From: Rhodococcus coprophilus NBRC 100603 | Lineage (GTDB): Bacteria > Actinomycetota > Actinomycetes > Mycobacteriales > Mycobacteriaceae | Length of the DNA stretch: 64,000 nucleotides | Reading direction: 5' to 3' | Assembly (NCBI RefSeq): GCF_001895045.1 | Contig: NZ_BDAM01000005.1 | Span: forward strand, 372,001 to 436,000 | In this document: positions 29,754 through 43,811 of the stretch, piece after piece | How the letters are laid out: each line of letters opens with the position of its first letter | How positions within the stretch are numbered: the first letter of the stretch is position 1 | Made by a program: the position numbers and the translations under genes | Notes under the pieces: model-generated | What the model was told of the DNA's origin: nothing | The model's database searches: none | The model's input: only the letters and a program-made list of their open reading frames with translations

Positions 29754-30764
29754 TCAGGCGCTGTAGGCGGCAACCACCTCGGGGTGGTCCATGCAGGCGG
29801 TCGCGCCTTCCGCAACGCAGGTGAGAGGACGCTCGGCTGTCTTCACGGGAAGGCCGAAGGCTTCTTCGAGCAGTTGCGGCAGACCCCGCAGCATCGATCC
29901 ACCGCCGATCGCCAGCATGCCTTCTGCCATTACGTCACCGATGGCCCGCGCCGGTAAGTCGTCGAGGCACGCGGACAGCGTCTGCACGATGCTCGTCATG
30001 GTGGGGCGCACCGCATCCATGATCTCCTCGGTTTCGAGAGTGACCAGCCGGACCCGGCCGGTCGCGGCGTCACGGCCCTCCACCACGAGCGGCTGTTCCT
30101 CGGCGGTCTCGGGTGCTCCCACCTTGGCCCGCTCCGCGGTGAATTCGCCGACGACGAGTTCGTGTTCCGCACGCAGGTAGCGGAGTATCGCCCTGTTCAG
30201 GTCGTTTCCCGCAATTCGGCAACTGCGGTGCGACAGGACACCGCCGTAACAGAGCGCAGTGACTTCCGAAGTGCCACCGCCGATGTCGACGACGAGATGG
30301 GTGGACGGCTCGAGCGGATTGAGACCGCAGCCGAGGGCGCCGGCCACCGGTTCCGGTACCAGGCCGACCTTCCGCAGACCCGCCTCGTGTGCGACTTCGA
30401 GCATCGCGCGACGCTCGAGCGGGGTCACGCCGGCGGGAACCGCGACGACACCCGTCGGCCGTGTACCGAATCGGCGGCGGGGGGCGGCCCGCTCGAGAAC
30501 GGCACTGACGAACGTCCGAGCCGTCCCGAGATCCACGATGACACCGTCACGTATCGGGTGAATCGCCGTTATTCCGGAGGGAATACGGTCGACGAGGTCG
30601 CTCGCCTCGTGGCCGATCGTGAGCGCTTTGTGGGGTTCCCTCGTCCGAACCATCAACAGCGACGGTTCGTTCAGGACTATGCCGTCTTCGGGAGTGCCGA
30701 CGACAGTATTGGCTGTTCCGAGATCGATACCGAATCCACGCACGTCGGCCTCCGAGCGGATCAC
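29754..30764 (-). CDS. mreB: MreB-like actin homologue
   Basis: A 336-aa protein from GTG 30764; GTG 30743, preceded by GGAG, is an equally good start. Actin-superfamily motifs are clear: phosphate 1 DLGTANTVVG, NEPSLLMV, HPIRDGVI, connect 1/phosphate 2 VVDIGGGTSEVTAL, the TAERAK region, and adenosine motif AIGGGSMLRGLP. The order and wording match MreB rather than Hsp70 or ParM. MreB filaments guide the elongation synthase in rod-shaped bacteria. The gene converges on the SEDS-PBP fusion with 17 bp between stops. Mycobacterium and Corynebacterium lack MreB, so its presence here is unusual if the host is Corynebacteriales. Confidence 0.85.
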   Translation of the reverse strand: MIRSEADVRGFGIDLGTANTVVGTPEDGIVLNEPSLLMVRTREPHKALTIGHEASDLVDRIPSGITAIHPIRDGVIVDLGTARTFVSAVLERAAPRRRFGTRPTGVVAVPAGVTPLERRAMLEVAHEAGLRKVGLVPEPVAGALGCGLNPLEPSTHLVVDIGGGTSEVTALCYGGVLSHRSCRIAGNDLNRAILRYLRAEHELVVGEFTAERAKVGAPETAEEQPLVVEGRDAATGRVRLVTLETEEIMDAVRPTMTSIVQTLSACLDDLPARAIGDVMAEGMLAIGGGSMLRGLPQLLEEAFGLPVKTAERPLTCVAEGATACMDHPEVVAAYSA

Positions 30765-30932: not shown

Positions 30933-32369
30933 CTACAGCGCGACGTACTTGGTCTCCAGATACTCCTCGATCCCTTCCGTGCCACCCTCACGACCGAACC
31001 CCGACTCCTTCACCCCGCCGAACGGGGCGGCGACGTCGGAGACGACTCCTCGGTTCACGCCCACCATCCCAGCCTTCAGCGCCGACGCGACGCGCATCGC
31101 GCGGTCGAGATCGCGGGTGTAGAAATATGCGGCTAGGCCGTATTCGGTGTCGTTTGCAGCGGTGATCGCTTCGGCCTCGGTGTCGAAGGTGGTGATGGCG
31201 ACGACCGGGCCGAAGATCTCCTCGCGCACCACACGGGCGTCGGCGGGAACCTGGTCGAGAACGGTGGGTGGGTAGAAGGTGCCGGGGCCGCCGGGGACAA
31301 CGCCGCCGACCAGGAGACGCGCGCCTTGCGCGATCGCATCGACGACCAGCTCGTGTACCCGGCCACGCTGCACAGCGGTGATGAGGGGGCCGAGGTCGGT
31401 GCCGTCGTCGAGACCGTGGCCCATCCGCAGTGCGGACATCCGGGCGACCAGTCTTTCGGTGAAGTCCTCCGAGACCTCTTTCGCTACATAGAAGCGGTTC
31501 GCGGCGGTGCACGCTTCGCCACCGTTCCGCATTTTCGCCGCCATGGCGCCGTCGACGGCGGCGTCGATGTCGGCGTCGTCGAACACGAGGAACGGTGCGT
31601 TGCCGCCGAGTTCCATGGAGGTGCGCAGCAGGCGGTCGGCTGACTGGCGAACCAGCAGTTTGCCGACGCCGGTGGAGCCGGTGAAGGTGATCTTCCGCAG
31701 GCGCGGATCGGTGATCAGAGATTCGGTCAGCGCGGCAGCGTCCGAAGTCGGCAGGATCGACAGCACCCCTTCAGGGAGTCCGGCGTCGGCGAAGACCTGT
31801 CCGAGCATCAGCATCGTCAAGGGTGTCTCGGCAGCGGGTTTGACGATGATTGTGCAGCCCGCAGCGAGCGCGGGGCCGATCTTGCGAGTTGCCATGGCCA
31901 ACGGGAAGTTCCACGGAGTCACCGCCAGGACAGGCCCGACGGGTTCTTTGGTGACCAGGATTCGGCCGTTGCCGGAGGGTGGCGTGGTGGTGCGCCCACC
32001 GATGCGTACGGCTTCCTCGGCGTTCCACCGCAGGAACTCGGCACCGTAGTTCACTTCGCCGTGGGCCTCGGCGAGGGTTTTGCCCATTTCGAGAGTGATG
32101 GTGCGGGCGAAGCCGTCGGCACGTTTCTTCACGAGTTCGAATGCGGTGCGGAGGATTTCACCCCGCTCACGAGGGGGTTTTGCTGCCCACGCGGCTTGCG
32201 CTTCGTCGGCAAGATCGAGAGCCCGCGCACTGTCTGCGGGGGACGCGTCGGCGACCTCGGCGAGCGTCTCACCGGTCGCGGGATCCTCGACGGGGAACGT
32301 GGCACCCGTGGATGAGGTGGTGAGAGTGCCGCCGAGCCACAGCCGGTTCGGAATGTCGAGCGCGGTCAC
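30933..32369 (-). CDS. gabD: Succinate-semialdehyde dehydrogenase
   Basis: A 478-aa aldehyde dehydrogenase, close to the usual GabD length. The catalytic cysteine is C287 in GGEACTAANR and the general base is E253 in MELGGNAP. The Rossmann motif FTGSTGVGK and PWNFPLAM are present. It oxidises succinate semialdehyde to succinate with NAD(P)+. GTG 32369 overlaps the gabT stop (GTGA), so the two are coupled and should work in sequence on GABA. It is the last gene of the long catabolic unit. Confidence 0.9.
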   Translation of the reverse strand: MTALDIPNRLWLGGTLTTSSTGATFPVEDPATGETLAEVADASPADSARALDLADEAQAAWAAKPPRERGEILRTAFELVKKRADGFARTITLEMGKTLAEAHGEVNYGAEFLRWNAEEAVRIGGRTTTPPSGNGRILVTKEPVGPVLAVTPWNFPLAMATRKIGPALAAGCTIIVKPAAETPLTMLMLGQVFADAGLPEGVLSILPTSDAAALTESLITDPRLRKITFTGSTGVGKLLVRQSADRLLRTSMELGGNAPFLVFDDADIDAAVDGAMAAKMRNGGEACTAANRFYVAKEVSEDFTERLVARMSALRMGHGLDDGTDLGPLITAVQRGRVHELVVDAIAQGARLLVGGVVPGGPGTFYPPTVLDQVPADARVVREEIFGPVVAITTFDTEAEAITAANDTEYGLAAYFYTRDLDRAMRVASALKAGMVGVNRGVVSDVAAPFGGVKESGFGREGGTEGIEEYLETKYVAL

Positions 32370-33745
32370 TGCGGGGCTCCCACGAGCGCACCCGCGACAG
32401 CGCGGACGGCGTCGCCGAGAACCTCGAGCCCGTCGAGGAGCAGGTCGTCGGAGATCACCAGCGGCGGCAGCAACCGGATGACGTTGCCGTACGTGCCGCA
32501 CGTGAGGAGGATGACGCCCTCGGCGAGCGCCCGAGCGGCAATCGCCGCTGCAGCTTCGGGATTCGGCTCACGGGTGCCGGGAAGGACCAGCTCGATTGCG
32601 AGCATCGCACCGCGACCACGGACCTCGCCGATCACATCCACCTCGTCGGCGAGGGCGCGCAGACGTTCGGTGGCGATCTGCTCGATGTGCCGCGCGCGGC
32701 CACACAGATCGAGTTCTTCCATTCGTTCCATGGTGGCGAGCGCGGCGGCGCACGCGACCGGGTTGCCACCGTAGGTGCCGCCGAGTCCGCCACCGTGCAC
32801 GGCGTCGATCAGATCGGCGCGGCCCGTGACCGCAGCGAGTGGCATACCACCCGCGACACCCTTGGCGATGGTCACGAGGTCGGGCACGACGCCCTCGTCG
32901 TCACATGCGAACCACCGGCCGGTGCGGGCGAGGCCGGTCTGCACCTCGTCGGCGACGAAAACGATGCCGTGCGCTTTGGCCCAGTCGGCGAGCGCGGGCA
33001 GGAAGCCCCGGGCGGGAACGATGAATCCGCCCTCGCCCTGGATCGGTTCGATCACGATCGCCGCGACGTTGTGCGTTCCGATCTGCTTGTCGATCTGCAT
33101 GATTGCGCGCTGTGCCGCCTGAGGACCGGAGATCGGAGTGCCGTCGTGATTGAGGTCGTCGCGGAACGGGTACGACGCCGCCACCCTGTGGACGTCGGCC
33201 GCGAACGGGCCGAAACCCTCCTTGTACGGCTTGTTCTTCGCGGTCATCGCCATCGTCAGGTTGGTACGCCCGTGGTAGCCGTGGTCGAAGACGACGACGG
33301 TCTTGCGTCCGGTGGCGACGCGGGCAATCTTCACCGCATTCTCCACGGCCTCGGCGCCGCTGTTGAACAGCACCGTGCGTTTGGCGTGGTCGCCCGGGGT
33401 GAGCTCGGCGAGCTTTTCCGCAACAGCGATGTAGCCCTCGTACGGGGTGACCATGAAGCAGGTGTGAGTGAAGTGCGCCGCCTGCTCCTGGATCGCCTTC
33501 ACCACAGCGGGATCCGAGGCGCCGACGGAGGTGACGGCGATTCCGGAGCCGAGGTCGACGAGCGAGTTGCCGTCGACATCGATGATGATGCCGCCGTCGG
33601 CGTCCGCCGTGTAGACGGGGACGGACGACATGACCCCGGCGCCGACGGCATTGCGCCGACGCTCGGTCAGCTCGACCGACCGTGGGCCGGGCAGGTCGGT
33701 GACGAGGCGACGTTGCTGGGGGATGCGGTATGCGATCTCGGACAT
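32366..33745 (-). CDS. gabT: 4-aminobutyrate aminotransferase
   Basis: A 459-aa class III pyridoxal-phosphate aminotransferase. K295 in TIAKGVAGGMPLAAV is the PLP lysine, VFVADEVQTGLARTG holds the cofactor-binding aspartate, and NSGAEAVENAVKIAR is the phosphate-binding region. It moves the amino group of GABA to 2-oxoglutarate, yielding succinate semialdehyde for GabD. It lies 36 bp downstream of the ureohydrolase, whose expected product in this setting would be GABA. Confidence 0.92.
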   Translation of the reverse strand: MSEIAYRIPQQRRLVTDLPGPRSVELTERRRNAVGAGVMSSVPVYTADADGGIIIDVDGNSLVDLGSGIAVTSVGASDPAVVKAIQEQAAHFTHTCFMVTPYEGYIAVAEKLAELTPGDHAKRTVLFNSGAEAVENAVKIARVATGRKTVVVFDHGYHGRTNLTMAMTAKNKPYKEGFGPFAADVHRVAASYPFRDDLNHDGTPISGPQAAQRAIMQIDKQIGTHNVAAIVIEPIQGEGGFIVPARGFLPALADWAKAHGIVFVADEVQTGLARTGRWFACDDEGVVPDLVTIAKGVAGGMPLAAVTGRADLIDAVHGGGLGGTYGGNPVACAAALATMERMEELDLCGRARHIEQIATERLRALADEVDVIGEVRGRGAMLAIELVLPGTREPNPEAAAAIAARALAEGVILLTCGTYGNVIRLLPPLVISDDLLLDGLEVLGDAVRAVAGALVGAPQ

Positions 33746-33781
33746 CGACGGGCCTTTCGGTGGAGCAAAGTGAGGAAGAGG

Positions 33782-34723
33782 TCAGGCCTTCGGCAGGGCC
33801 ATGGCGGAGAGCAGTTCGTAGCCGACGTGCGCGGCCGCGATACCCGTGATCTCGGCGTGGTCGTAGGACGGGGACACCTCGACGATGTCGGCGCCGACGA
33901 GATTCGTTCCGGCAAACGCGCGCAGCATACGCAGCAATTCCCGGCTCGTCATGCCGCCGGCTTCGGGGGTGCCGGTGCCCGGGGCGTGGGCGGGGTCGAG
34001 CACGTCGATGTCGACGGACACATACACCGGCCGGTCGCCGATGCGAGCCAGCATCCGCTCGATCGCCGCAGCGACACCGTCGATTTCGATCTCTGGTGAG
34101 GTGACGGCGGCGAAGCCGAGCATCTTGTCGTCGGACAGGTCCTGGTCGCTGTAGAGCGGCCCGCGGGTGCCGATGTGCATGCTGGCCTCGCGGTCGATCA
34201 GGCCCTCCTCGGACGCCCGGCGGAACGGCGTGCCGTGGGTGATCGAGGCGCCGAAGTAGGTGTCCCACGTATCGAGGTGCGCGTCGAAGTGGACGACGGC
34301 GACGGGGCCGTGGCGACGCGCGACCGAGCGGAGCAGCGGAAGGGCGATGGTGTGGTCACCGCCGATGGTGAGCAGGCGCGTGCCGTCACCCGTCAGAGCG
34401 TCGGCGCCACGTTCGATGTCGGTGACGGCCTCGTCGATGTTGAACGGGTTGCACGCAATGTCGCCGGCATCGGATACCTGCATCTCCTTGAACGGTGAGA
34501 CGTCCAGCGCCGGGTTGTAGGGGCGCAGCAGCTTCGAGGACGCGCGGACGTGTGCCGGTCCTAGTCGGGCGCCGGGCCGGTAGCTCACACCGGTGTCGAA
34601 GGGGACACCGACGATCGCGACGTCGGTGCTGGTGACCTCGTCGAGGCGGGGGAGGCGCGCGAAGGTGCCGGGACCGTTGTAGCGGGGAACCTGTGAGGCG
34701 TCGACGGGTCCGATGGGGCTCAT
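33782..34723 (-). CDS. Agmatinase/guanidinobutyrase-type ureohydrolase
   Basis: A 313-aa protein of the arginase superfamily from ATG 34723 (AAAGGA upstream). The two-manganese site is visible in [18 protein letters not shown] and [19 protein letters not shown], all at the family spacing. These enzymes hydrolyse a guanidino compound to an amine plus urea. Because gabT and gabD follow directly, 4-guanidinobutyrate (giving GABA) is a more likely substrate than agmatine, but sequence alone cannot settle this. It follows the class II aldolase gene by 26 bp. Confidence 0.85.
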
Positions 34724-34749
34724 GGTGGAAGGTCCTTTGCTGGAAGGTG

Positions 34750-35511
34750 TCAGTCGGCGTAGCCGGGTGCGATGCGGTCGACCAGGCGCAGCAGCGCGGC
34801 CCACGCGAGGTCGGCGCCCGGGTCGGCGAAATCGTCGCCGGTGTTCGTGCCGGTGAGTTGACGTGCGCTGCGTTCGCACACGTTCGGTGGGGGCAGGATC
34901 AGTGGTCCGGCCGCAGCGGCGGTGACCTGGATCTCGCACGCCCGGTTGAGGTAGAACATGCGCAGAAATGCTTGCGCTGCAGTGCTTCCTACAGTGAGAA
35001 GCCCGTGGTTGCGGAGGATCATGACGGGGTGGTCGCCGAGATCGGCGACGAGGCGGGCCTGTTCGTCGAAGCTCAGCGCGACGCCTTCGTAGTCGTGGTA
35101 TCCGACGCGGTTGTAGAACTCCATCGACATCTGGTTGACCGGAAGCAGACCGTCGGTGGTCGCCGCGACCGCGCAGCCCGCCCTGGTGTGGGTGTGCATC
35201 ACACAGTGCGCGTCGGGTCGTGCGGTGTGCACTGCGCTGTGGATGACGAAGCCGGCCGGGTTGACCACGGCTCCGGTGTCCCCGATGGGTTGTCCGGAAG
35301 GATCGACGACCACCAGGTTCGACGCCGTGATCTCCTCGAAGAGCAACCCGTACGGGTTGATGAGGAAGCGCGGTTCCGGTCCGGGCAGCCGCAACGAAAT
35401 GTGCGTGAAGATCAGGTCGGTCATTCCGAAGTGTGCGACGAGCCGGTACACGGCGGCGAGATCGCGGCGCAGCCGCTGTTCCTCGGCGGATTCGATGTCG
35501 AGAACGGTCAC
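34750..35511 (-). CDS. Class II aldolase/adducin-family protein
   Basis: A 253-aa protein from GTG 35511, overlapping the reductase stop by GTGA. The metal-binding histidines are in [12 protein letters not shown], and [11 protein letters not shown] is the conserved NHG motif of this family. THISLRLPG and [12 protein letters not shown] mark the N-terminal half. Family members are zinc-dependent aldolases or decarboxylases on sugar phosphates and related hydroxy acids. The substrate is unknown; the coupling to the Rieske reductase suggests that it cleaves a hydroxylated intermediate. Confidence 0.8.
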
Positions 35512-36491
35512 AGGTCCAGCACCGCCTTCGATATCGGCCGGGACACGCAGGGGAAGAAGCACTTTCCTTCTGCTCGTTCCTCGTCGAGGAGGATGTTGTC
35601 CCGGTGTTCGATCTCCCCGGACAGGACACCGACTTCGCAGCTTCCGCACGTTCCCTCACGGCACGACCACATGACGTCGGCACCCGCGCGTTGGAGAGCG
35701 TCGAGGACCGATTCGTCGGCGGCGACCTCCACCACGGCGCCGTCGACGCCGAGTTGGACCGAGCACGTCGTCGACGCCGTGTCACCGGAAGGAGCGGCGG
35801 CAGGTTGTGCCGGTGCGGGATCGAAGGATTCGGTCCGCAGCACCTCGGCCGGGAGCAACTCGGTGAGTTCGGTCAGCATGCGCTCGGGCCCGCACGAGTA
35901 CACGAGCGTGCCGGGGATCTCGCCGGAGAACAGGGTGGGCAGATCGAGACGATCGGCATCGCCGCTCGGATACAGGTGAACCGGAGCGCCCGTCGCGGCC
36001 AGCCGTTCGACGAATGCGACCGGCGCGTCGCCCGAGTATGCGTAGTGCACCGAGACGTGCGCGCCACGCGCCGCGGTCAGTTCGATCATCGGCAGGAGCG
36101 GTGTGATGCCGATACCTCCGGCGACGAAGATGTAGCGAGACGCATTCTCGAGCGGGAAGTGCTGACGTGGGCCCTGTGCCCGCAGCAGGTCGCCGGGACG
36201 CAGTGTCGAGTGGACGTAGGCGGAGCCACCGCGTGAGTCGGTCGCGGCGCGCACCGCGACCGTCCAGGTCCGCAGGTCGGAGGGGTCGCCGCACAGTGAG
36301 TACTGGCGAGTCAGGCCGGGGGAGAGTTCGAGGTCGACGTGGGCGCCGGGTTCCCATTCCGGCATCGGTTCACCGGTGGGATCGGCAAGAGTGACCGACA
36401 GAATTCCCTCGGCCTCCCAAGCGATTCCGGTGACGCGGACGGTACGAGTGCGCGACGTGCGTTCGATCGAGGACTCGAGAAGTGCGGTCAT
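35508..36491 (-). CDS. Phthalate dioxygenase reductase-type FMN/2Fe-2S oxidoreductase
   Basis: A 327-aa protein with FMN, NAD and plant-type ferredoxin domains in that order. RQYSLCGDP is the flavin-binding motif, [15 protein letters not shown] the NAD-binding motif, and the C-terminal cluster ligands are C277, C282, C285 (CREGTCGSC) and C315. It passes electrons from NAD(P)H to the Rieske oxygenase encoded just upstream, whose stop it overlaps (ATGA). This one-protein reductase is typical of two-component class IA systems such as VanB or carnitine monooxygenase reductase. Confidence 0.9.
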
Positions 36492-37693
36492 CGGTAGCCT
36501 GCCTTGGTTGCGACGCGATCCTGGAACACTGCCGTGACCTGGTCCCAGTGCGACACCAGGTTCGTCGAATCCGAGCCGGGGGAGTTCCGGCCGATCTGCA
36601 GACGGTGCAGCATCGGCATGTCCTGTTCGTTGACCTCCCACAGCACCTCGCACAACTGGGCGCGGGTCTCGCTGTAGTCGTCTCCGGCGGCGGACGAGTC
36701 GACGAAAATCGACATGTACTCGACGGTGCGGTTCGGTGCGACGGGGTGATAGCCGATGACCTGGAACCAGTCGGCCTCGAGGAAGACCAGGGCATTGGGG
36801 AAGAGGCAGAAGATGTCCTGCCGTTCGAGCCGGTCGGCGGGCACGTCGCCGAGCCACGGCAGCGACTTCGACGTCTTCTCGGCCTTGCCCGCTGCACCGC
36901 GCGGATAGCTGCCGCCCATGATGTCCGGGTGCAGCGCTATGTCGTCGACATCGAGGGAGACGGTGACCGGACCGACCTGAGGATGGACGAACGGCAGGTG
37001 GTAGAAGTCGAGGAAGTTCTCGACGATGAGCTTCCAGTTGGCGTCGACGTCGAACTTCTTCTCCCCGGCAAGGTGGAGCCGGCTGAAGTCGATGTGCGAC
37101 CAGCGGCTCAGCAGCGGCTCGAGGTGCGCGGCAAAGCTCTCCGCGCACGCTTGTGGGTCGGTGTCGGTGGCGGACAGATCGATGAAGATCATCCCGGCCC
37201 AGGTGTGGCTCGCGACGAGCAGCAGGCTCAAACGCTCGGCGGTTTCCGGATCGAGCTTCGACCGCCGCTCACGTGTGTAATACGGTGCGGCAGCGAGTGT
37301 TCCGTCGAGCTTGAACGACCAGCAGTGGTAGGCGCACTGGATGCGGCCCTGCACGACGATCGGATCCTCGGTCAGTGCCATGCCGCGGTGGCGGCAGGAG
37401 TTGTGGAACACGCGGATCTGTCCGTCGTCGCCGTGTACGAGCAGGAGTGGTTTCCCGCCGATGGTCACAGGATGCACCGAGCCGACCTCACCCACCCAGT
37501 GCTCGTAACCGGCCCACACCCATCCGGACGAAAAGATCCGGTCCTGTTCGAGGGCGAACTCCTCGGCGCCCGTGTAGGCGCGCGCCGGGACGAGGGCGCG
37601 ACCGGTGGGCATAGCGGGCAGCGGGCCGTCGATCACGATGTTGCCGGTCGATGTGGTGGTCCGTTCCGGTACCGGAAACTGAAGGGTGCTCAT
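36488..37693 (-). CDS. Rieske non-haem iron oxygenase, alpha subunit
   Basis: A 401-aa protein from ATG 37693 (GAGGAG upstream). The Rieske cluster ligands are C100 and H102 in SCRHRGMAL and C120 and H123 in CAYHCW. The mononuclear iron site has H232 and H237 in FYHLPFVH, preceded by the bridging acidic residues of NWKLIVENFLD. No beta subunit is encoded nearby, so it is probably homo-oligomeric like the carnitine/betaine and vanillate demethylase types. It could hydroxylate or N-dealkylate the substrate brought in by the ABC importer; which substrate is not known. Confidence 0.9.
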   Translation of the reverse strand: MSTLQFPVPERTTTSTGNIVIDGPLPAMPTGRALVPARAYTGAEEFALEQDRIFSSGWVWAGYEHWVGEVGSVHPVTIGGKPLLLVHGDDGQIRVFHNSCRHRGMALTEDPIVVQGRIQCAYHCWSFKLDGTLAAAPYYTRERRSKLDPETAERLSLLLVASHTWAGMIFIDLSATDTDPQACAESFAAHLEPLLSRWSHIDFSRLHLAGEKKFDVDANWKLIVENFLDFYHLPFVHPQVGPVTVSLDVDDIALHPDIMGGSYPRGAAGKAEKTSKSLPWLGDVPADRLERQDIFCLFPNALVFLEADWFQVIGYHPVAPNRTVEYMSIFVDSSAAGDDYSETRAQLCEVLWEVNEQDMPMLHRLQIGRNSPGSDSTNLVSHWDQVTAVFQDRVATKAGYR

Positions 37694-38580
37694 CGTGACG
37701 CTCCTCGAGAAGTGATGGTGGTGGTGTGGTCCGTCGCCTCTGCGAACGCGGCGACGGCACGGTCGCGCAGAGTCAGGGTGTCGGCCCACCGGTCGGACAG
37801 TTCGATGCCGTCGCGGTCGGTAATGGCGTACGGAGTGGTGCCCAATTCGGTGCAGAACATGACCGGCGCGTCGCTCGCCTCTCGGGCGCGACGCTCGAGG
37901 ACAGCGGTGAATGCGCGTGTCCACCAGCCGGTGAACAACTCTTCCCACTCGCGGTGCTGCGGGAACCCGAGCGGGATCTGCACCTGGCACCGGGTGGCGA
38001 TGCGTCCCTGGACGGATTCGGCGCGGGCGAACAGCGCTTCGAGGTGCTGCTCGATCTCGGGAGTCGGCGTCACCGGGATCTCGCTGCCTGCCACGTAATG
38101 TGACAAGTCGATCGCGAGGTTGACGTCGTCGTCCAGGTCCTGCAGCAGACGCGTCGTGCGGCGCATGTCGTCGGTGAGAGTGTTCCGGTGGGTTTCGAGC
38201 TGCATCGCGACACCCGCGGCGCTGCTCCGACGGTGCCAGCGGTGCACGGTCTCGACGACCTTCGCATCGTCGGGGTCGAAGACGCACCCGCACACCACCA
38301 TCCGGTCCGCACCGATGGTCTCCGCGTAACGGAGCGCGGCGTCGAGATCGGAATCGTCGCGGAGAAAGGCGAACACCGCGGTCTGCAGCGGGCGATCGCG
38401 GAGCAGGGAAGCGAGAACGTCGGCGTCGGGTTTGCCCCGGGCGCCGAGATCGACGGCGACCCCGTCGAAGTTCTCGCCCACGAGCTGATCGAGTTGCTGC
38501 GCAAGGGTCCACGGTGCACCGCGCCACGGCAGATCCTCCATCGCCCACAGGGACTGGAACATCTCGAGCCGAATACTCAT
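37690..38580 (-). CDS. Sugar-phosphate isomerase/epimerase-like TIM-barrel protein
   Basis: A 296-aa protein whose frame fits the AP-endonuclease 2/xylose isomerase-like TIM barrel. NFDGVAVDLGA, DRMVVCGCVFD, MQLETHRNTL and LAIDLSHYV are the strand ends that carry metal ligands (E, D, H). The family includes hydroxypyruvate isomerase and inosose dehydratase. The first 100 residues upstream of ATG 38580 in the same frame look like non-coding shadow. It overlaps both neighbours by 4 bp. Its reaction is unknown. Confidence 0.75.
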   Translation of the reverse strand: MSIRLEMFQSLWAMEDLPWRGAPWTLAQQLDQLVGENFDGVAVDLGARGKPDADVLASLLRDRPLQTAVFAFLRDDSDLDAALRYAETIGADRMVVCGCVFDPDDAKVVETVHRWHRRSSAAGVAMQLETHRNTLTDDMRRTTRLLQDLDDDVNLAIDLSHYVAGSEIPVTPTPEIEQHLEALFARAESVQGRIATRCQVQIPLGFPQHREWEELFTGWWTRAFTAVLERRAREASDAPVMFCTELGTTPYAITDRDGIELSDRWADTLTLRDRAVAAFAEATDHTTTITSRGASR

Positions 38581-39551
38581 GCGATCACCTCGTTCGGGGT
38601 GGTGGGCTTCGTGACTGCGTGGGACGGGCACCCGGTGCGGTACCACTCGACGACGTTGGCCGCCTGCATGCGGACGTACTCGCGTGCGGTCCGGTCCGAC
38701 AGGTACGCCACGTGCGGGGTCAGCAGGACGTTGGGATGCTCGGCGAGGCGGTCGCCGGGAAGGGGTGGCTCGGTATCGAGCACGTCGAGAGCGGCACCGG
38801 CCAGGTGACCGGAGTCGAGGGCGTCGGCGAGGGCATCGGAGTCGACGATGCCGCCACGGGAGACGTTGATCAGCCACGAGCCCGGTTTCATCGCAGCGAT
38901 CAAGTCGGCGTCGAACAGTTTCTCGGTGGACTCGTCGAGCGGCAGGTGGATGGAGACGACGTCGGACTGTGCGACGACGTCGGCGAGTGACGACGCTGTC
39001 ACTCCCTCGGGCACCTGCCGGCCGGCGCGGTCGACGCCGAGGACCGATCCGACCGAGCCGGCCGCGAGCGCGGCGACCTCGCTGCCGATCCGACCGAGTC
39101 CGACGAGCCCGAGGGTGGTGTCGGACAGCCGGCGCGGTGCGTACCGTGGCCGGTCGAGCCAGTCACGACGGCCGTGCAGTGTGAAGAAGTCGAGCCGGCG
39201 TACCGCGGCGAGCGTCAGTGCCCAGGTGTGGGTCGCTACCTCCGTGGAGGCGATGTCTCCTACGGTCGCCACCCACACGTCGTGCGCGGTGGCCGCGTCG
39301 ACATCGACGGAGTCGTAGCCGCGCGAGAGCATCGAGATGATTCCGAGACCGGGCAGCCGCTCGATGAGGTCGGCATGGACCGGGGCGTAACCGACGAGGA
39401 GTGCGGACGCATCCGTCGCCGCCGCCACGATGGTGTCGGGGTCGCGGGTTTCCAGTACGCGTACCTCGAAGCCTTCGGCCTCCAGCAGGGCGATGCCCTC
39501 CGAGGGGTCGAGGTCGTCGAGATCCGTGTAGACCGCGATCGGGGATGCCAT
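38577..39551 (-). CDS. D-2-hydroxyacid dehydrogenase family protein
   Basis: A 324-aa protein of the D-isomer-specific 2-hydroxyacid dehydrogenase family. The NAD-binding motif is GLVGLGRIGSEVA, followed by a VDRAG strand. Catalytic features are INVSRGGIVD with R, DVLDTEPPLP with E, and LTPHVAYLS with H. Family members reduce 2-oxo acids or oxidise D-2-hydroxy acids with NAD(P). The substrate is not predictable. It follows the ABC ATPase gene by 20 bp and overlaps the TIM-barrel gene. Confidence 0.85.
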   Translation of the reverse strand: MASPIAVYTDLDDLDPSEGIALLEAEGFEVRVLETRDPDTIVAAATDASALLVGYAPVHADLIERLPGLGIISMLSRGYDSVDVDAATAHDVWVATVGDIASTEVATHTWALTLAAVRRLDFFTLHGRRDWLDRPRYAPRRLSDTTLGLVGLGRIGSEVAALAAGSVGSVLGVDRAGRQVPEGVTASSLADVVAQSDVVSIHLPLDESTEKLFDADLIAAMKPGSWLINVSRGGIVDSDALADALDSGHLAGAALDVLDTEPPLPGDRLAEHPNVLLTPHVAYLSDRTAREYVRMQAANVVEWYRTGCPSHAVTKPTTPNEVIA

Positions 39552-39571
39552 GATGCTCCGTTCGGCGTGGA

Positions 39572-40342
39572 TCAGTGGATGTGGGACAGGAAGGCGCGGG
39601 TGCGTTCGTGCTCGGGTGCGGTGAAGAACTGCTCGGGCGGTGCCTGCTCGACGATGACCCCGCTGTCGAACAAAGCGACCTCGTCGGCGACTCTGCGCGC
39701 GAAGCGGGTCTCGTGGGTGACCACGATCATCGTCATGCCCTGCTCGGCAAGATCTTCCATGACGGTGAGCACCTCGTTGACCAGCTCGGGATCGAGGGCC
39801 GATGTGGGTTCGTCGAACAGCATCACCGAGGGATCGAGGACCAGGGCCCGGGCGATCGCGACGCGTTGTTGCTGCCCGCCCGAGAGCTCCGACGGGTAGT
39901 GCCGCATGCGCTGGGACATTCCGACCCGTTCGAGCATGCGTTCGGCACGGTCCACGGCTTCCGCCTTCGATACGCCGTGGACCTCGGTGAGGCCGAGGAT
40001 GACGTTGTGGAGCACGTCGAGGTGTGCGAACAGGTTGAACTTCTGGAACACCATCCCGATGTCGGTGCGCTCGCGTGCGAGCTTGCGCTCCGGCAAGGGG
40101 ATGGAGCGTCCGTCGCGCCCGGTAGCCACACCGATTTCTCTGCCGCGGAGCAGAATCGAACCGCTGTCGACCGGTTCGAGCAATGCCATCAGGCGGAGGA
40201 TGGTGGACTTTCCGGAGCCGGACGGACCGAGCACCGCTTTGACCTGGCCGGGTTCGATCGCGAAATCGACGCCCTTGAGGATTTCGTTCTTGCCGTACGT
40301 CTTACGCAGCCCGACGGTCTCGAGCAGAGGGATGCTGGTCAT
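39572..40342 (-). CDS. Polar amino-acid-type ABC transporter, ATP-binding protein
   Basis: A 256-aa ATPase of the HisP/GlnQ group. Walker A is GPSGSGKST, the signature is LSGGQQQRVAIARAL, Walker B is VMLFDEPTSALDPE, and the switch histidine is in VVTHETRFA. The MVFQKFNLFAHLDVLHNV stretch is typical of amino-acid importers. ATG 40342 overlaps the permease stop. It powers the importer formed with the two preceding genes. Confidence 0.92.
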   Translation of the reverse strand: MTSIPLLETVGLRKTYGKNEILKGVDFAIEPGQVKAVLGPSGSGKSTILRLMALLEPVDSGSILLRGREIGVATGRDGRSIPLPERKLARERTDIGMVFQKFNLFAHLDVLHNVILGLTEVHGVSKAEAVDRAERMLERVGMSQRMRHYPSELSGGQQQRVAIARALVLDPSVMLFDEPTSALDPELVNEVLTVMEDLAEQGMTMIVVTHETRFARRVADEVALFDSGVIVEQAPPEQFFTAPEHERTRAFLSHIH

Positions 40343-41103
40343 GTGGATACCGCGTCTTTCTTCGTCCCGACATCCTTCTTCTTGCCGGTGTTCTTGCTCG
40401 TTCCTGCTGCCACGGAGTCGATTCCGGCCGACACCCAGCGGTATCGGCGTTCGATCAGGGTCTGCACACCCATGAGGGCGCTGACGATGACGAGGTAGTA
40501 GACCAGTGCGGCGCTGTAGTACTCGGCATACCGGAAGGTCGTCGACACACCGACCTGGGCGGTCGTGAGCAGTTCGCGGAGCGAAATCACCGATGCGATC
40601 GAGGTGTACTTGAGCATTGCGATGAATTCGTTGCCGGTAGGCGGCAGTGCGACCTTGATCGCTTGGGGAAGAACGACTTTCAGGAGGACCTTGTGCGGGG
40701 GAAGTCCGATGGCCCGGGCTGCTACCCGCTGGCCGTCGTCGACGCTCAGAAGCGCTGATCGGAGGATCTCCGCCATGTAGGCGGCTTCCACCACCGCGAA
40801 TCCGACGAACGCGGCGATGAACGGGCTGAACCAGTTCTCCCGCAGAGCGGGGAACAACTGAGGGCCGGCGTTCCAGATGATCAACAGCACCAGCAGTGTC
40901 GGGATGGCGCGGAAGAACCACACATACGCTCCACCGACCGTGCGTGCGAGCCGGTTGTCGCTGATGCGCAGCAGTGCGACACCGAACCCGATCACCGTCG
41001 CGAAGAGCATCGATACGGCCGCGAGTGCTATCGACAGCCAGGCGCCCCGGAAGAACTCGGACGAGGTCAGGGCTGTGAAGAAGATGTTCCAGTCGAAGGC
41101 CAT
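40339..41103 (-). CDS. Polar amino-acid-type ABC transporter, permease
   Basis: A 254-aa permease of the HisM/GlnP family with about five membrane helices. The cytoplasmic EAA loop reads AARAIGLPPHKVLLKVVLPQA. FFRAIPTLLVLLIIWN is the conserved second helix. The Lys/Thr-rich tail (GTSKNTGKKKDVGTKKD) after the last helix is unusual for the family. It pairs as a dimer with the ATPase below and the binding protein above. Confidence 0.9.
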   Translation of the reverse strand: MAFDWNIFFTALTSSEFFRGAWLSIALAAVSMLFATVIGFGVALLRISDNRLARTVGGAYVWFFRAIPTLLVLLIIWNAGPQLFPALRENWFSPFIAAFVGFAVVEAAYMAEILRSALLSVDDGQRVAARAIGLPPHKVLLKVVLPQAIKVALPPTGNEFIAMLKYTSIASVISLRELLTTAQVGVSTTFRYAEYYSAALVYYLVIVSALMGVQTLIERRYRWVSAGIDSVAAGTSKNTGKKKDVGTKKDAVST

Positions 41104-41107
41104 GGCG

Positions 41108-41941
41108 TCACCCGGTAGTGATGCGGGAAGGATCGAGGCCGTAGTCGGCGGCGATGCTCGCCAGTGTTCCGTTCTCGTCCAGCGTGCGGAGACCCTCGGC
41201 GACCGGCCCGCTCAGGGGTGAGCCCTTCTTGGTGAAGACACCGAACGTGGTGTCCACCGGGAACACGTCATCCACCGCGACGAGGGCACCATTCGACTTG
41301 GAGACCATGTCGACCACCGCGACGTCGGTCTCGATCAGGGCGTCGGCCTTGCCGTTGGTGACCGCTGCCACCGTCTCGGCGGTCTTGGGGTAGGCCTGGA
41401 TCGTGATGCCCGGCTTGCCGGCAGCCTCGAACTCGTCCGACAACGCCTTGACGGTCAGCTCGTTGCTGCCGCCACCCTGAACGGCAACGGTTTTGCCGGA
41501 AAGGTCATCGGTGGTGGTGATCGAGGTGTCACCGCTACGGACGATAAGGCCCGGTCCCGTTTCGAGGAACGGGGCACCATCGGCGACCTCGAGGCGTTCG
41601 GGACTCATATAGAGCGCGGTCCACAGGATGTCGCACCGGCCTGCCTGCAGCGCCGGCATCAAGCCGTCGAACGCGGTGATCTGCCACTTCACGTCGACCT
41701 CCCAGAGGTCGGCGAGGGCCTTTGCCCCGTCGGAGGTGAAGCCGATCGGGTTGCTCGTGTCGCCTTCGGCGAAGTACTCCATCGGGGGGTATTCGGGATC
41801 GGTGCAGAACGTCACCTCACCGCCGCGCATCAGCCCGGCGGGGGCTGCCCCGTTCGCCTCACTCCCTGCGGATTCGCCTCCGCATGCCGCGAGAAGCAGG
41901 GCGATGCCGGTTCCGGCTGCCAACAGACCTGGTTTTCTCAT
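41108..41941 (-). CDS. ABC transporter solute-binding lipoprotein (family 3)
   Basis: A 277-aa protein with a lipoprotein signal peptide ending LLLAAC (cleavage before C20). The mature part begins with VTFCTDPEYPPMEYF and continues FDGLMPALQAGRCDILW, typical of family 3 binding proteins for amino acids and opines. GGAG lies 8 bp before ATG 41941. The ligand is unknown; the downstream pathway points to a guanidino or other basic nitrogen compound. It is the first gene of the unit, divergent from the Lrp-like regulator. Confidence 0.9.
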   Translation of the reverse strand: MRKPGLLAAGTGIALLLAACGGESAGSEANGAAPAGLMRGGEVTFCTDPEYPPMEYFAEGDTSNPIGFTSDGAKALADLWEVDVKWQITAFDGLMPALQAGRCDILWTALYMSPERLEVADGAPFLETGPGLIVRSGDTSITTTDDLSGKTVAVQGGGSNELTVKALSDEFEAAGKPGITIQAYPKTAETVAAVTNGKADALIETDVAVVDMVSKSNGALVAVDDVFPVDTTFGVFTKKGSPLSGPVAEGLRTLDENGTLASIAADYGLDPSRITTG

Positions 41942-42189: not shown

Positions 42190-42192
42190 ATG
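42164..42192 (+). promoter_or_regulatory. Inverted repeat spanning the regulator start codon
   Basis: CATCGGAT at 42164-42171 is a perfect inverted copy of ATCCGATG at 42185-42192, with 13 nt between. The right arm contains the ATG start of the Lrp-like gene, and no Shine-Dalgarno sequence precedes it. It may be an autoregulatory operator or, in RNA, a hairpin that covers the start codon. Confidence 0.45.
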
Positions 42193-43125
42193 ACCAGCCC
42201 CGTAACATTCGCTGTGCAAGACCTCGATGCACGCATCCTCGAGGAGTTGCGACTCGACGGCCGCATCGGTCGCAACGAACTGGCAGCCAAGCTCGAGGTC
42301 TCGCGTCCCACCGTGTCGAAGAGGCTCAACGCCATGCTCGAGAGTGGCCGGGTGCGGGTCGTGGGAATCGTGCATCCCTCGACAATCGGGCTGGACGCAC
42401 TCGGGCACGTCGCCATCGCCGTCGACCAACCGGTGCGGCAGGTTGCAGCCCGTATCGCAGCTCTGCACGACGTCCCCTATGTGTCGCTGACCAGCGGCGG
42501 ATACCCACTGATCGCGGAAATTCGCACCGCCGGCGCGGCTCGGCTCGCCTCATCGCTCGAACGCATCCGCAGCATCGACGGGGTTCGTGAGACGAATACC
42601 CTCGTGTACTCGGACCTCATCGTCGACATCGGCCGACCGGACAAAGTGCCGGCCACGAGGCTCGACCATTTGGACGTCCGGTTGCTGGGAGTGCTGCAGG
42701 ACGACGGACGAGCGTCGTACACCGAACTCGCCGAGGCGACAGGGACGTCGCCGGGCACCGCCCGCCTCCGGGTCAAGCGCCTGATCGACGACGGAGTATT
42801 GCGTATCGGGGCGCTCGTCGGCGCGGGACAACACGAGTCCGGAGTCGCAGTCGGGTTCGGCATCCGGGCAACCGGACGTATGTCGGATCTTTCGTCCACC
42901 ATCGCCGAGATCCCCGGCGTCAGATTCCTGGCCAGCACGATCGGGCGATTCGATCTACTGGGTACCGTCCATGCCACCCGCCTCGAAGACGTCGTGGCCT
43001 CGCTCGATACGGTGCGGGCACTCCGGTCCGTTCTCGACGTGGACAGCTGGGTTCATCTCCACACCGTGAAAGAGCGATACAACAACGTTCCGGCGCTCTC
43101 CACCATCAGGGAGGAACAATCGTGA
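42190..43125 (+). CDS. Lrp/AsnC-family transcriptional regulator with two HTH-Lrp modules
   Basis: A 311-aa protein, about twice the usual Lrp length. Residues 8-60 (LDARILEELRLDGRIGRNEL, then SRPTVSKRLNAM) form one AsnC-type winged helix, and residues 155-210 (LDHLDVRLLGVLQDDGRASY, then GTSPGTARLRVKRLIDDGVL) form a second. Each is followed by a ligand-sensing RAM-like region. Tandem proteins of this type control amino-acid and nitrogen compound genes. It is divergent from the importer and catabolic unit and is the obvious candidate regulator. Its stop overlaps the next gene by GTGA. Confidence 0.88.
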   Translation: MTSPVTFAVQDLDARILEELRLDGRIGRNELAAKLEVSRPTVSKRLNAMLESGRVRVVGIVHPSTIGLDALGHVAIAVDQPVRQVAARIAALHDVPYVSLTSGGYPLIAEIRTAGAARLASSLERIRSIDGVRETNTLVYSDLIVDIGRPDKVPATRLDHLDVRLLGVLQDDGRASYTELAEATGTSPGTARLRVKRLIDDGVLRIGALVGAGQHESGVAVGFGIRATGRMSDLSSTIAEIPGVRFLASTIGRFDLLGTVHATRLEDVVASLDTVRALRSVLDVDSWVHLHTVKERYNNVPALSTIREEQS

Positions 43126-43811
43126 CGACCATTATCGACTTGCCTTGGGCGGCCATACCCGTGCGGGGCCGCACGACAGTCTCTCGTCATGACTCCCTCG
43201 CGTCGACAACCGCATTGCTCCTCGCGGGGGTCGTCACCGGCGGCACGGTGATGGTGCGTGAACCATTGAACTTGGATCCCGGCACCGCACGCGGGTTGCG
43301 CGCAGCCATCGCCTCGACCGGCGCGTACGTCGTGGCGTCGGCCGATGGGGTGACGGCGACAACCCGTGCGACGGCCGGTGAACTGCCGCAGTTCCGCTGC
43401 TCGGTGCCCGCTGAGGTGCTTCCGTTGTACGCGGTGGTCGCCACCCGGGCCGCCGGCGAGTGCGTTCTGTCCTGCACGGACGGGATTGCGGGGGAAGCCC
43501 TTCCGATTCTCGCGGAACTCGGAATCACCGCCCGCGACGGAGAGACGGGCCTTGTCGTCTCGCCCGGATTGGCCCGGACGGACGACGCGGTCGCCCCCGG
43601 AGGAGACGTGCGTGTCGCGCTGGCCGCATTGCTGGCGGCGCTCGTTCGACCCGGCGGGCGTCTCTGCGACTCCGCAGTACTCGACGCGGCGCTGCCGGGG
43701 TTCCTCGAACGTTGGAACGCGTTGCTCCACGCCGACGAGTACTTGTTGCCGGGCAGTGCACTGCTTCCGGGCGACTACACGAAGCGGTCGTCGTCCGAAA
43801 TCGGCCACTGA
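43122..43811 (+). CDS. Half-length EPSP-synthase-like (enolpyruvyl transferase fold) protein
   Basis: A 229-aa protein from GTG 43122, overlapping the regulator stop. The start IPVRGRTTVSRHDSLASTTA, with LLLAGVVTGGTVMVREPL and a DPGTARGLRAAIASTGAYV helix-strand pair, resembles the GSKSxTNRALLLAALAxGxS region and the first repeat unit of AroA. The active-site lysine of that motif is absent, and the length is only about half of the 430 aa of AroA. It therefore cannot be a normal EPSP synthase. It may be a ligand-binding partner of the regulator or a new enzyme; the fold call is based on motif resemblance only. Confidence 0.55.
   Translation: MTTIIDLPWAAIPVRGRTTVSRHDSLASTTALLLAGVVTGGTVMVREPLNLDPGTARGLRAAIASTGAYVVASADGVTATTRATAGELPQFRCSVPAEVLPLYAVVATRAAGECVLSCTDGIAGEALPILAELGITARDGETGLVVSPGLARTDDAVAPGGDVRVALAALLAALVRPGGRLCDSAVLDAALPGFLERWNALLHADEYLLPGSALLPGDYTKRSSSEIGH

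What the first reader, a model, noticed from the sequence alone, without database searches (positions are those of the whole stretch)
30933..41941. Eleven-gene unit linking a Rieske oxygenase to guanidino-acid and GABA breakdown
The genes are coupled or close (many 4-bp overlaps) and read as import, oxidation, cleavage, urea release, GABA transamination and oxidation to succinate. The ureohydrolase-GabT-GabD end is the 4-guanidinobutyrate route; the Rieske pair, TIM barrel, class II aldolase and D-hydroxyacid dehydrogenase are not part of any such path that I know. The unit may break down a modified arginine or guanidino natural product.
Basis: inference. Interest (0 to 1): 0.75.

Follow-up and report, generated by a model that had tools for sequence, protein, structure and literature searches.

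The report
Operon predicted to degrade a guanidino acid
Eleven soil-actinobacterial genes form one operon that probably imports an arginine-related compound, unmasks it with oxygen, shortens it with an unusual metal enzyme instead of the usual thiamine enzyme, and turns the rest into urea and succinate; the starting compound is still unknown.

Summary
In detail: eleven minus-strand genes (41941->30933), six of ten junctions overlapping by 4 bp. Two steps have non-homologous stand-ins. Over 30 genomes, 21 have the 'class II aldolase' and 8 a TPP 2-ketoarginine decarboxylase, none both, one neither. 27 have the ureohydrolase; the other 3 are exactly those with a deiminase-like gene. So the 'aldolase' most likely handles 2-ketoarginine or a close analogue, before guanidine removal. 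Its solved relatives include NovR and TqaM, so I predict an O2-dependent oxidative decarboxylase giving 4-guanidinobutyrate, then GABA, urea and succinate. The switch rests on few evolutionary events. The oxygenase and TIM protein probably unmask the substrate; the TIM family also accompanies MocDEF in 10 of 13 fetched plasmid loci, and PhyH or P450 in one each. The true substrate and the dehydrogenase's position remain inferred. New variant of the known 4-guanidinobutyrate route.

The parts
41108..41941 (-). family-3 solute-binding protein of a polar amino-acid ABC importer (277 aa)
   Evidence: PF00497 80.5 bits; best NCBIfam lysine/arginine/ornithine binding subfamily 92.7 bits, below its cut-off 256
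40339..41103 (-). ABC importer permease (254 aa)
   Evidence: PF00528 78.3 bits
39572..40342 (-). ABC importer ATPase (256 aa)
   Evidence: PF00005 118.3 bits; start chosen
38577..39551 (-). D-2-hydroxyacid dehydrogenase (324 aa)
   Evidence: PF02826 173.5 bits; R232, E261, H280 invariant in 24 of 24 aligned rows
37690..38580 (-). TIM-barrel metalloenzyme-like protein (296 aa), companion of oxygenases
36488..37693 (-). Rieske non-heme iron oxygenase alpha subunit (401 aa)
   Evidence: PF00355 and PF00848; C100/H102/C120/H123, H232/H237/D358 and D229 invariant in 23 of 23 rows (window and 22 of the 23 loci; L021 was left out)
35508..36491 (-). NAD(P)H/flavin/[2Fe-2S] reductase of the oxygenase (327 aa)
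   Evidence: PF00111 at the C-terminus; BenC and GbcB profiles match below cut-off
34750..35511 (-). class II aldolase/adducin-fold protein, predicted 2-oxoacid decarboxylase, probably O2-dependent (253 aa, GTG start)
   Evidence: PF00596 175 bits; TqaM and NovR among PDB matches; H91, H95, H106, H108, H169 invariant in 18 of 18 rows; excludes TPP 2-ketoarginine decarboxylase over 30 genomes
33782..34723 (-). ureohydrolase, probable 4-guanidinobutyrase (313 aa)
   Evidence: PF00491 317 bits; best PDB match guanidinobutyrase 3nio 273.7 bits; H124, D147, H149, D151, D238, D240 invariant in 14 of 14 rows
32366..33745 (-). 4-aminobutyrate aminotransferase GabT (459 aa)
   Evidence: TIGR00700 588.7 bits, cut-off 506.65; PRK06058 774.8, cut-off 639
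30933..32369 (-). succinate-semialdehyde dehydrogenase-like GabD (478 aa)
   Evidence: PF00171 545 bits; TIGR01780 552 bits, below its cut-off 646
42190..43125 (+). divergent tandem AsnC/Lrp-type regulator (311 aa)
   Evidence: two AsnC helix-turn-helix stretches and a ligand-binding domain; a homologue in the same place in most loci
43122..43811 (+). 229-aa protein overlapping the regulator by 4 bp; a relative matches half of EPSP synthase
   Evidence: homologues beside the regulator in 14 of 23 loci; L025 copy PF00275 55 bits, profile 236-394; no Pfam hit for the window copy

Best explanation
A catabolic operon for an arginine-derived guanidino acid. The ABC importer brings in the compound. 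The Rieske oxygenase with its reductase, together with the TIM-barrel protein, unmasks it (most likely an oxidative O- or N-dealkylation or a hydroxylation). The D-2-hydroxyacid dehydrogenase oxidises the resulting 2-hydroxy acid to 2-ketoarginine or a close analogue and gives back the NADH the oxygenase uses. The class-II-aldolase-fold protein then acts as a metal-dependent decarboxylase, most likely a 3-His iron, O2-dependent oxidative one, giving 4-guanidinobutyrate directly. It replaces the TPP 2-ketoarginine decarboxylase (and the need for an aldehyde dehydrogenase) of relatives. The ureohydrolase releases urea and GABA, and GabT and GabD make succinate; the genome has a urease alpha gene for the urea. 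Shown here by computation: gene identities, conserved order, the two non-homologous replacements over whole genomes, intact motifs. Inferred: every reaction, all intermediates, the identity of the imported compound, and what the oxygenase and TIM steps do.
For: Replacement 1: over 30 genomes, 21 have the aldolase-fold orthologue (366 bits or more), 8 have a PRK07524 2-ketoarginine decarboxylase (489 bits or more; 7 over the cut-off of 500, G767 at 489.1), 0 have both, 1 (G242) has neither clearly (388 and 268 bits); 0 of 14 control genomes pass that cut-off. Replacement 2: ureohydrolase orthologue (E 1e-80) in 27 of 30; the 3 without it are exactly the 3 with the deiminase-like gene, which in those loci is followed by an M20 carbamoylase-like gene. 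Background in the order: ureohydrolase 28 of 101; dropping 7 genomes with the unit or a remnant leaves 21 of 94, against 27 of 30 (Fisher p 3e-11, kinship ignored and the 30 not all of that order). The aldolase-fold protein's solved relatives include TqaM and NovR; NovR/CloR use 3 His and O2 for oxidative decarboxylation of a 2-oxo acid and a 2-hydroxy acid (passages of PMC13111500). A 2-hydroxyacid dehydrogenase also lies beside or near its homologues in L078, L079, L080 and L088; a deiminase-family gene in L074 and L079. Ureohydrolase metal ligands and the dehydrogenase residues are invariant; GabT passes its cut-off.
Against: No assay; substrate unknown. The TPP/aldolase-fold switch needs two changes on the oxygenase tree, and one is not ruled out, so the exclusion is not 29 independent tests; L020-L022 are near-copies and counted three times. 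TqaM and NovR (98.8, 89.7 bits) rank below uncharacterised 3ocr (235.7), adducins and 4xxf, which is labelled fuculose-1-phosphate aldolase (118.7); the fold also holds decarboxylases with no stated need for O2 (profiles of OtnC 27.6 and PhtC 60 bits, far below cut-off), so 'oxidative' is less sure than 'decarboxylase'. Aldolase-fold homologues sit in many settings with no annotated deiminase or arginase gene (12 of 14 fetched plasmid loci). In L088 (G433) one pairs with the dehydrogenase without Rieske, TIM or ureohydrolase nearby (G433 is not among the 28). The ureohydrolase has Tyr156 where guanidinobutyrase 3nio has Met and guanidinopropionase 3nip has Tyr (that this site matters is recalled), so its acid may differ. 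GabD is below the SSADH cut-off. gabT and gabD are absent from most relatives' loci. Nothing explains why a D-2-hydroxy acid should arise.
Confidence: 0.55

Rival explanations
1. Aldol route: the oxygenase hydroxylates C4 of an arginine-type 2-oxo acid and the class II aldolase splits it into pyruvate and a short guanidino aldehyde, which the aldehyde dehydrogenase and ureohydrolase finish.
For: Class II aldolase family membership (PF00596); a solved match labelled fuculose-1-phosphate aldolase (4xxf, 118.7 bits) outranks TqaM and NovR; a hydroxylase upstream would make the needed hydroxyl.
Against: In its place relatives have a 2-ketoarginine decarboxylase, which by its family name acts on an unhydroxylated C5 2-oxo acid. 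The position that I equate by hand with the catalytic Glu of E. coli fuculose aldolase (motif recalled, not from a call) is an invariant Gly87. GabT would have no obvious substrate.
Confidence: 0.12
2. N-demethylation of methylarginine-type or betaine-type guanidino compounds: the Rieske enzyme is a demethylase like those of glycine betaine, stachydrine or carnitine, formaldehyde is removed by the class III alcohol dehydrogenase-like gene of some relatives, and the rest runs as in the best explanation. This is a version of it with a named first step.
For: Best NCBIfam match of the oxygenase is glycine betaine monooxygenase GbcA (107 bits); best profile match in PDB is carnitine oxygenase CntA (109.5 bits). 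A gene resembling mycothiol-dependent formaldehyde dehydrogenase (L025 copy 245 bits, cut-off 513) lies in the locus in five of eight TPP-type loci (L025, L028-L031). Two plasmid relatives of the oxygenase (33% and 32%) lie with an aldehyde dehydrogenase and FAD oxidoreductases, one beside a BCCT transporter.
Against: All scores are far below family cut-offs; with the single sequence two other Rieske proteins outrank CntA (7yls 89.1, 9o71 88.4, CntA 85.1 bits) and ring-hydroxylating enzymes follow closely in the profile search. The Cys pair of CntA and Stc2 is missing, and the bridging residue is Asp, not the Glu of CntA. Does not explain the 2-hydroxyacid dehydrogenase or the TIM protein. No such alcohol dehydrogenase-like gene is in the window unit.
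Confidence: 0.3
3. Two pathways in one operon: Rieske-TIM-dehydrogenase-aldolase genes degrade an unrelated acid, and the ureohydrolase-GabT-GabD genes merely sit downstream.
For: gabT/gabD are in the unit only in the window and L011; the ureohydrolase lies outside the locus in several relatives; L088 has the aldolase-fold/dehydrogenase pair without a ureohydrolase or deiminase; TIM relatives occur in rhizopine-like settings.
Against: Exclusive replacement of the aldolase-fold gene by a 2-ketoarginine decarboxylase and of the ureohydrolase by deiminase plus carbamoylase, genome-wide, ties both halves to one guanidino path.
Confidence: 0.13

Closest known systems
Arginine transaminase / 4-guanidinobutyrate route of Pseudomonas (AruH, AruI, KauB, GbuA, GabT, GabD; recalled)
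   Same: C5 guanidino 2-oxo acid to 4-guanidinobutyrate to GABA, urea and succinate; TPP-type relatives of this unit keep a 2-ketoarginine decarboxylase-family gene.
   Different: No TPP decarboxylase in the window unit (best PRK07524 match in the own genome 309.6 bits against cut-off 500) and no arginine transaminase among its genes; instead Rieske, TIM, D-2-hydroxyacid dehydrogenase and an aldolase-fold protein.
NovR/CloR and TqaM, aldolase-fold enzymes of antibiotic and fungal pathways
   Same: Sequence relatives (TqaM 98.8, NovR 89.7 bits); HxH plus a further His conserved; role as 2-oxo/2-hydroxy acid decarboxylase predicted.
   Different: Under half the score of the nearest solved relative 3ocr (235.7 bits); here in a catabolic operon and predicted to act on an aliphatic guanidino acid.
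Other aldolase-fold decarboxylases in catabolism: PhtC (3,4-dihydroxyphthalate) and OtnC (3-oxo-tetronate 4-phosphate)
   Same: Same superfamily; profiles match weakly (60 and 27.6 bits).
   Different: Far below their cut-offs (200, 250); act on other acid types (by their names).
Rhizopine oxygenase MocDEF with the Msi119/XylA2-type TIM protein of rhizobia and Pseudomonas syringae
   Same: A TIM protein of the same family (31-36% identity in the best rows, all metal-site residues kept) beside an oxygenase; the TIM-MocDEF neighbourhood is in print (passages of PMC3538637 and PMC5132102). That those printed proteins are of this family is my inference from size and place.
   Different: Oxygenase is a Rieske alpha/reductase pair, not MocDEF; importer and regulator are amino-acid types, not sugar/LacI types; downstream genes are for a guanidino acid.
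Group V Rieske oxygenases (GbcA, CntA, Stc2)
   Same: Best-scoring named relatives in two searches.
   Different: No Cys pair, Asp bridge, low scores; guanidino setting.

Membership tests
Group V Rieske oxygenase (CntA/GbcA type) | Rieske Cys-His pairs and 2-His-1-carboxylate iron site | tested here: met
   C100, H102, C120, H123, H232, H237, D358 invariant in 23 of 23 rows; general to Rieske oxygenases
Group V Rieske oxygenase (CntA/GbcA type) | Cys-X-X-Cys beside the catalytic iron (present in some group V members) | tested here: not met
   F230/L233 at the places of CntA Cys206/Cys209, matched by hand on the xYHx motif (CntA residues from passages of PMC10952381)
Group V Rieske oxygenase (CntA/GbcA type) | score above the curated GbcA cut-off | tested here: not met
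   107.3 bits against 670
Class II (fuculose-type) aldolase | catalytic Glu next to the metal-binding histidines | tested here: inconclusive
   invariant Gly87 at the position equated by hand; fuculose aldolase motif recalled
NovR/CloR/TqaM oxidative decarboxylases | three metal-binding His in the aldolase fold | tested here: met
   H106, H108, H169 (plus H91, H95) invariant in 18 of 18; aligned with TqaM; such His are also general to the fold
NovR/CloR/TqaM oxidative decarboxylases | Fe(II)- and O2-dependent decarboxylation | not testable with these tools
   needs enzyme assay
4-guanidinobutyrase (GbuA) | six metal ligands of the ureohydrolase fold | tested here: met
   H124, D147, H149, D151, D238, D240 invariant in 14 of 14
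4-guanidinobutyrase (GbuA) | closest to characterised guanidinobutyrase; substrate-site residue as in GbuA | tested here: inconclusive
   best PDB match 3nio 273.7 bits, then 3nip 248.4; Tyr156 is as in guanidinopropionase 3nip, not Met as in 3nio
AruI-type arginine transaminase pathway | TPP 2-ketoarginine decarboxylase in the genome | tested here: not met
   best 309.6 bits against cut-off 500
GABA aminotransferase | score above TIGR00700 cut-off | tested here: met
   588.7 against 506.65
Succinate-semialdehyde dehydrogenase | score above TIGR01780 cut-off | tested here: not met
   552 against 646.35; still the best family
MocDEF rhizopine oxygenase system | MocD desaturase-like oxygenase with MocE and MocF | tested here: not met
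   the unit's eleven genes include no such oxygenase; only the TIM protein is shared
Xylose-isomerase-like TIM barrels (IolE, AsbF, epimerases) | fold | tested here: met

The most novel reading that the evidence does not exclude
The unit is an O2-dependent way to degrade arginine-type guanidino acids: an aldolase-fold iron enzyme turns 2-ketoarginine straight into 4-guanidinobutyrate, to my knowledge the first catabolic counterpart of NovR/TqaM, and a Rieske-TIM pair forms the unmasking step for an opine-like, O- or N-methylated arginine derivative. The TIM family would then be a general partner of at least four unrelated oxygenase folds (Rieske, MocDEF, Fe/2-oxoglutarate PhyH, P450), doing a chemically common job after (de)alkylation.
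Probability: 0.3. Interest if true: 0.78.

Novelty: new variant of a known kind. Interest (0 to 1): 0.6.

Why it matters
If right, a protein family filed as 'class II aldolase' contains a catabolic metal enzyme that decarboxylates 2-oxo acids, so annotations of many PRK07044-type proteins would change. It also gives actinobacteria an arginine-type catabolic path independent of TPP decarboxylase and aldehyde dehydrogenase. The TIM family's company with unrelated oxygenases, from rhizobia to actinobacteria, points to one shared, undescribed reaction that can be tested directly.

Tried and rejected
Literature (open-access PMC only, ten searches: 18, 19, 47, 62, 63, 68, 92, 95, 96, 130). In the listings of 18, 19, 63, 68, 95, 96 and 130 I saw no paper on this cluster; 'Rieske' with 'guanidinobutyrate' gave 0 papers. 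Only passages of five papers were read; the other listed titles were not opened. No search was aimed at TIM proteins beside PhyH or P450.

Opine (octopine) N-dealkylation, homoarginine alpha-oxidation, guanidino-cyclitols and a threonate-like 2-oxo/3-oxo isomerisation were weighed from chemistry alone; none explains the hydroxyacid dehydrogenase, TIM and 2-ketoarginine decarboxylase together, and no call decides between them. The plain aldol route is kept as a rival.

Structure of the oxygenase: mean pLDDT 62, active-site segment 221-285 under 50, so not used for pocket reasoning. TIM fold comparison gives isomerases, epimerases and dehydratases within about 2 Z units, so the reaction cannot be read from the fold.

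Aldolase-fold contexts in plasmids (14 loci fetched of 101 records): deiminase-family gene in 2, GhrA-like dehydrogenase in 3, PLP aminotransferase in 5, a 2-oxoglutarate or TauD oxygenase in 2; the rest uninformative. The aldolase-fold orthologue (E 1e-70) is in 6 of 101 genomes of the order: four carry the unit, G429 a remnant (L089: aldolase-fold gene and a shortened oxygenase, no TIM), G433 the aldolase-fold/dehydrogenase pair alone (L088). L066 (G242) has a short oxygenase and neither replacement gene nearby. G486's weak TIM match had no unit around it.

Full report

The unit is conserved but rare. A scan of GTDB contigs with the oxygenase gave 23 relatives, all actinobacterial by record title. 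All 23 have the TIM gene directly upstream of the oxygenase, and 22 of 23 the hydroxyacid dehydrogenase (the exception, L032, is a 3.9-kb contig). Searching by TIM found it in 2 of 394 genomes of the class (E 1e-20) and 8 of 397 of the order (E 1e-6, one of them weak), the own genome counted in both; the oxygenase lies next to it in all but the weak one. The importer is a polar amino-acid type in most loci and a SBP_bac_8-type ABC importer in L033 and L064 (in L065 by position and likeness only).

Two steps have non-homologous alternatives. In 17 of the 23 loci an aldolase-fold gene follows the oxygenase (or its reductase). In the other six (L017, L025, L028-L031) there is none; instead a TPP enzyme of NCBIfam family PRK07524, named 5-guanidino-2-oxopentanoate (2-ketoarginine) decarboxylase, lies beside the importer and dehydrogenase. 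Over the whole genomes behind 30 units the two never co-occur: 21 aldolase-fold, 8 TPP, 1 (G242) neither at that strength. If all genomes were independent, the chance of this exclusion among the 29 would be 2.3e-7, but they are not: on the oxygenase tree the TPP label needs two changes and one is not ruled out, and L020-L022 are near-copies. Genus g145 holds both states (G418 against G435, G448 and G496).

The ureohydrolase is likewise replaced. Its orthologue is in 27 of 30 genomes, in the locus or elsewhere; the three without it (those of L025, L028, L030) are exactly the three with a deiminase/dimethylargininase-like gene, followed in the locus by an M20 gene of the carbamoylase/allantoate amidohydrolase type. 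That pair could do the same job, guanidine to ureido to amine. The ureohydrolase is not universal: 28 of 101 genomes of the order have it, 21 of 94 without the carriers and a remnant.

Reading. A gene that stands in for a 2-ketoarginine decarboxylase should itself process 2-ketoarginine or a near analogue. The aldolase-fold protein is suited: its PDB relatives, after uncharacterised 3ocr, adducins and 4xxf (labelled fuculose-1-phosphate aldolase), are TqaM and NovR. In passages of PMC13111500, CloR/NovR are 3-His iron oxygenases that use O2 to decarboxylate a 2-oxo acid to a 2-hydroxy acid and that on to the acid. Five His around the metal motif are invariant in 18 of 18 unit members. So the likely reaction is 2-ketoarginine plus O2 to 4-guanidinobutyrate plus CO2, skipping the aldehyde. 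This is inference; TqaM's chemistry is recalled, and the fold also holds other catabolic decarboxylases (PhtC, OtnC profiles, weak), so a non-oxidative reaction is possible.

The dehydrogenase keeps Arg232, Glu261 and His280 in 24 of 24 rows (their role is general knowledge), so it should oxidise a D-2-hydroxy acid (or reduce a 2-oxo acid). It would feed the decarboxylase and return NADH to the oxygenase. Homologues of the aldolase-fold gene also lie beside or near D-2-hydroxyacid dehydrogenases in L078, L079, L080 and L088, and near deiminase-family genes in the acetic acid bacteria L074 and L079. Against a narrow reading, 12 of the 14 plasmid loci show no deiminase or arginase gene, and L088 pairs the two without the rest.

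The oxygenase and TIM protein. The oxygenase has all cluster and iron ligands in 23 of 23 rows and an Asp bridge. Its best named relatives are the quaternary-amine enzymes GbcA and, by profile, CntA; by single sequence two other Rieske proteins rank above CntA. It scores far below cut-off and lacks the Cys pair of CntA and Stc2. The TIM family is wider: 77 plasmid records. Of 13 loci fetched, 10 have MocDEF-type genes, 1 a phytanoyl-CoA-type dioxygenase, 1 a divergent P450 with ferredoxin and FAD oxidoreductase, and 1 none. The active-site residues are invariant across 19 compared rows. The TIM-MocDEF neighbourhood was noted for Mesorhizobium loti Msi119 and P. syringae xylA2 (passages of PMC3538637 and PMC5132102). 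I saw no paper that links this family to Rieske, PhyH or P450 enzymes, but no search was aimed at that. The mocD operon is required for use of an O-methyl compound, the rhizopine (passage of PMC3538637; PMC10107442); that MocDEF removes the methyl group is recalled. Class III alcohol dehydrogenase-like genes lie next to TIM in L058 and in the locus of five TPP-type units. So oxidative demethylation is the leading guess for the common theme, at about 0.4; what TIM does is open.

What is settled and what is not. Settled by computation: the unit, its conservation, two exclusive replacements, intact motifs. Probable: the direction from a C5 2-oxo guanidino acid to guanidinobutyrate to GABA. Open: the imported compound, the oxygenase reaction, TIM's reaction, the true specificity of the ureohydrolase (Tyr156), whether decarboxylation needs O2, and whether the 2-hydroxy acid is imported or made.

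Noticed in passing
26728-29736 (+) and 29754-30764 (-): A single 1002-aa ORF fuses a SEDS glycosyltransferase (FTSW_RODA_SPOVE, aa 90-412) to a class B penicillin-binding protein (dimerisation and transpeptidase domains, aa 476-995), next to an MreB/Mbl gene.
   Followed up: partly
43122-43811 (+), relatives such as L025:7233-8042 (-): A 229-aa protein in operon with the Lrp-type regulator; the L025 relative matches only the second half of EPSP synthase. A half EPSP-synthase-like domain beside a regulator is unexplained.
   Followed up: partly
L022 (Kitasatospora arboriphila NRRL B-24581, NZ_JNYV01000003.1): The locus and its flanks closely match the two Williamsia muralis loci L020 and L021, and its oxygenase end branch is 0.0045; the record may be mislabelled or contaminated.
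   Followed up: no
L072 (second TPP copy in G769, the genome of L030): A second 2-ketoarginine decarboxylase-like gene (509 bits) sits beside a flavin amine oxidoreductase in what looks, by eye, like a natural-product cluster, perhaps for a guanidinobutyryl starter unit.
   Followed up: no
L053, L054 (plasmids of Cupriavidus pauculus and Oceanisphaera): The nearest plasmid relatives of the oxygenase (32-33%) form a different shared set: Rieske, aldehyde dehydrogenase, two FAD oxidoreductases and a cupin/EutQ-like protein, one beside a BCCT transporter.
   Followed up: no
L064:1974-3260, L065:2325-3659 (+): A PLP aminotransferase of the CobD/HisC type, weakly like guanitoxin and capreomycidine enzymes, is convergent with the regulator in these two units.
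   Followed up: partly
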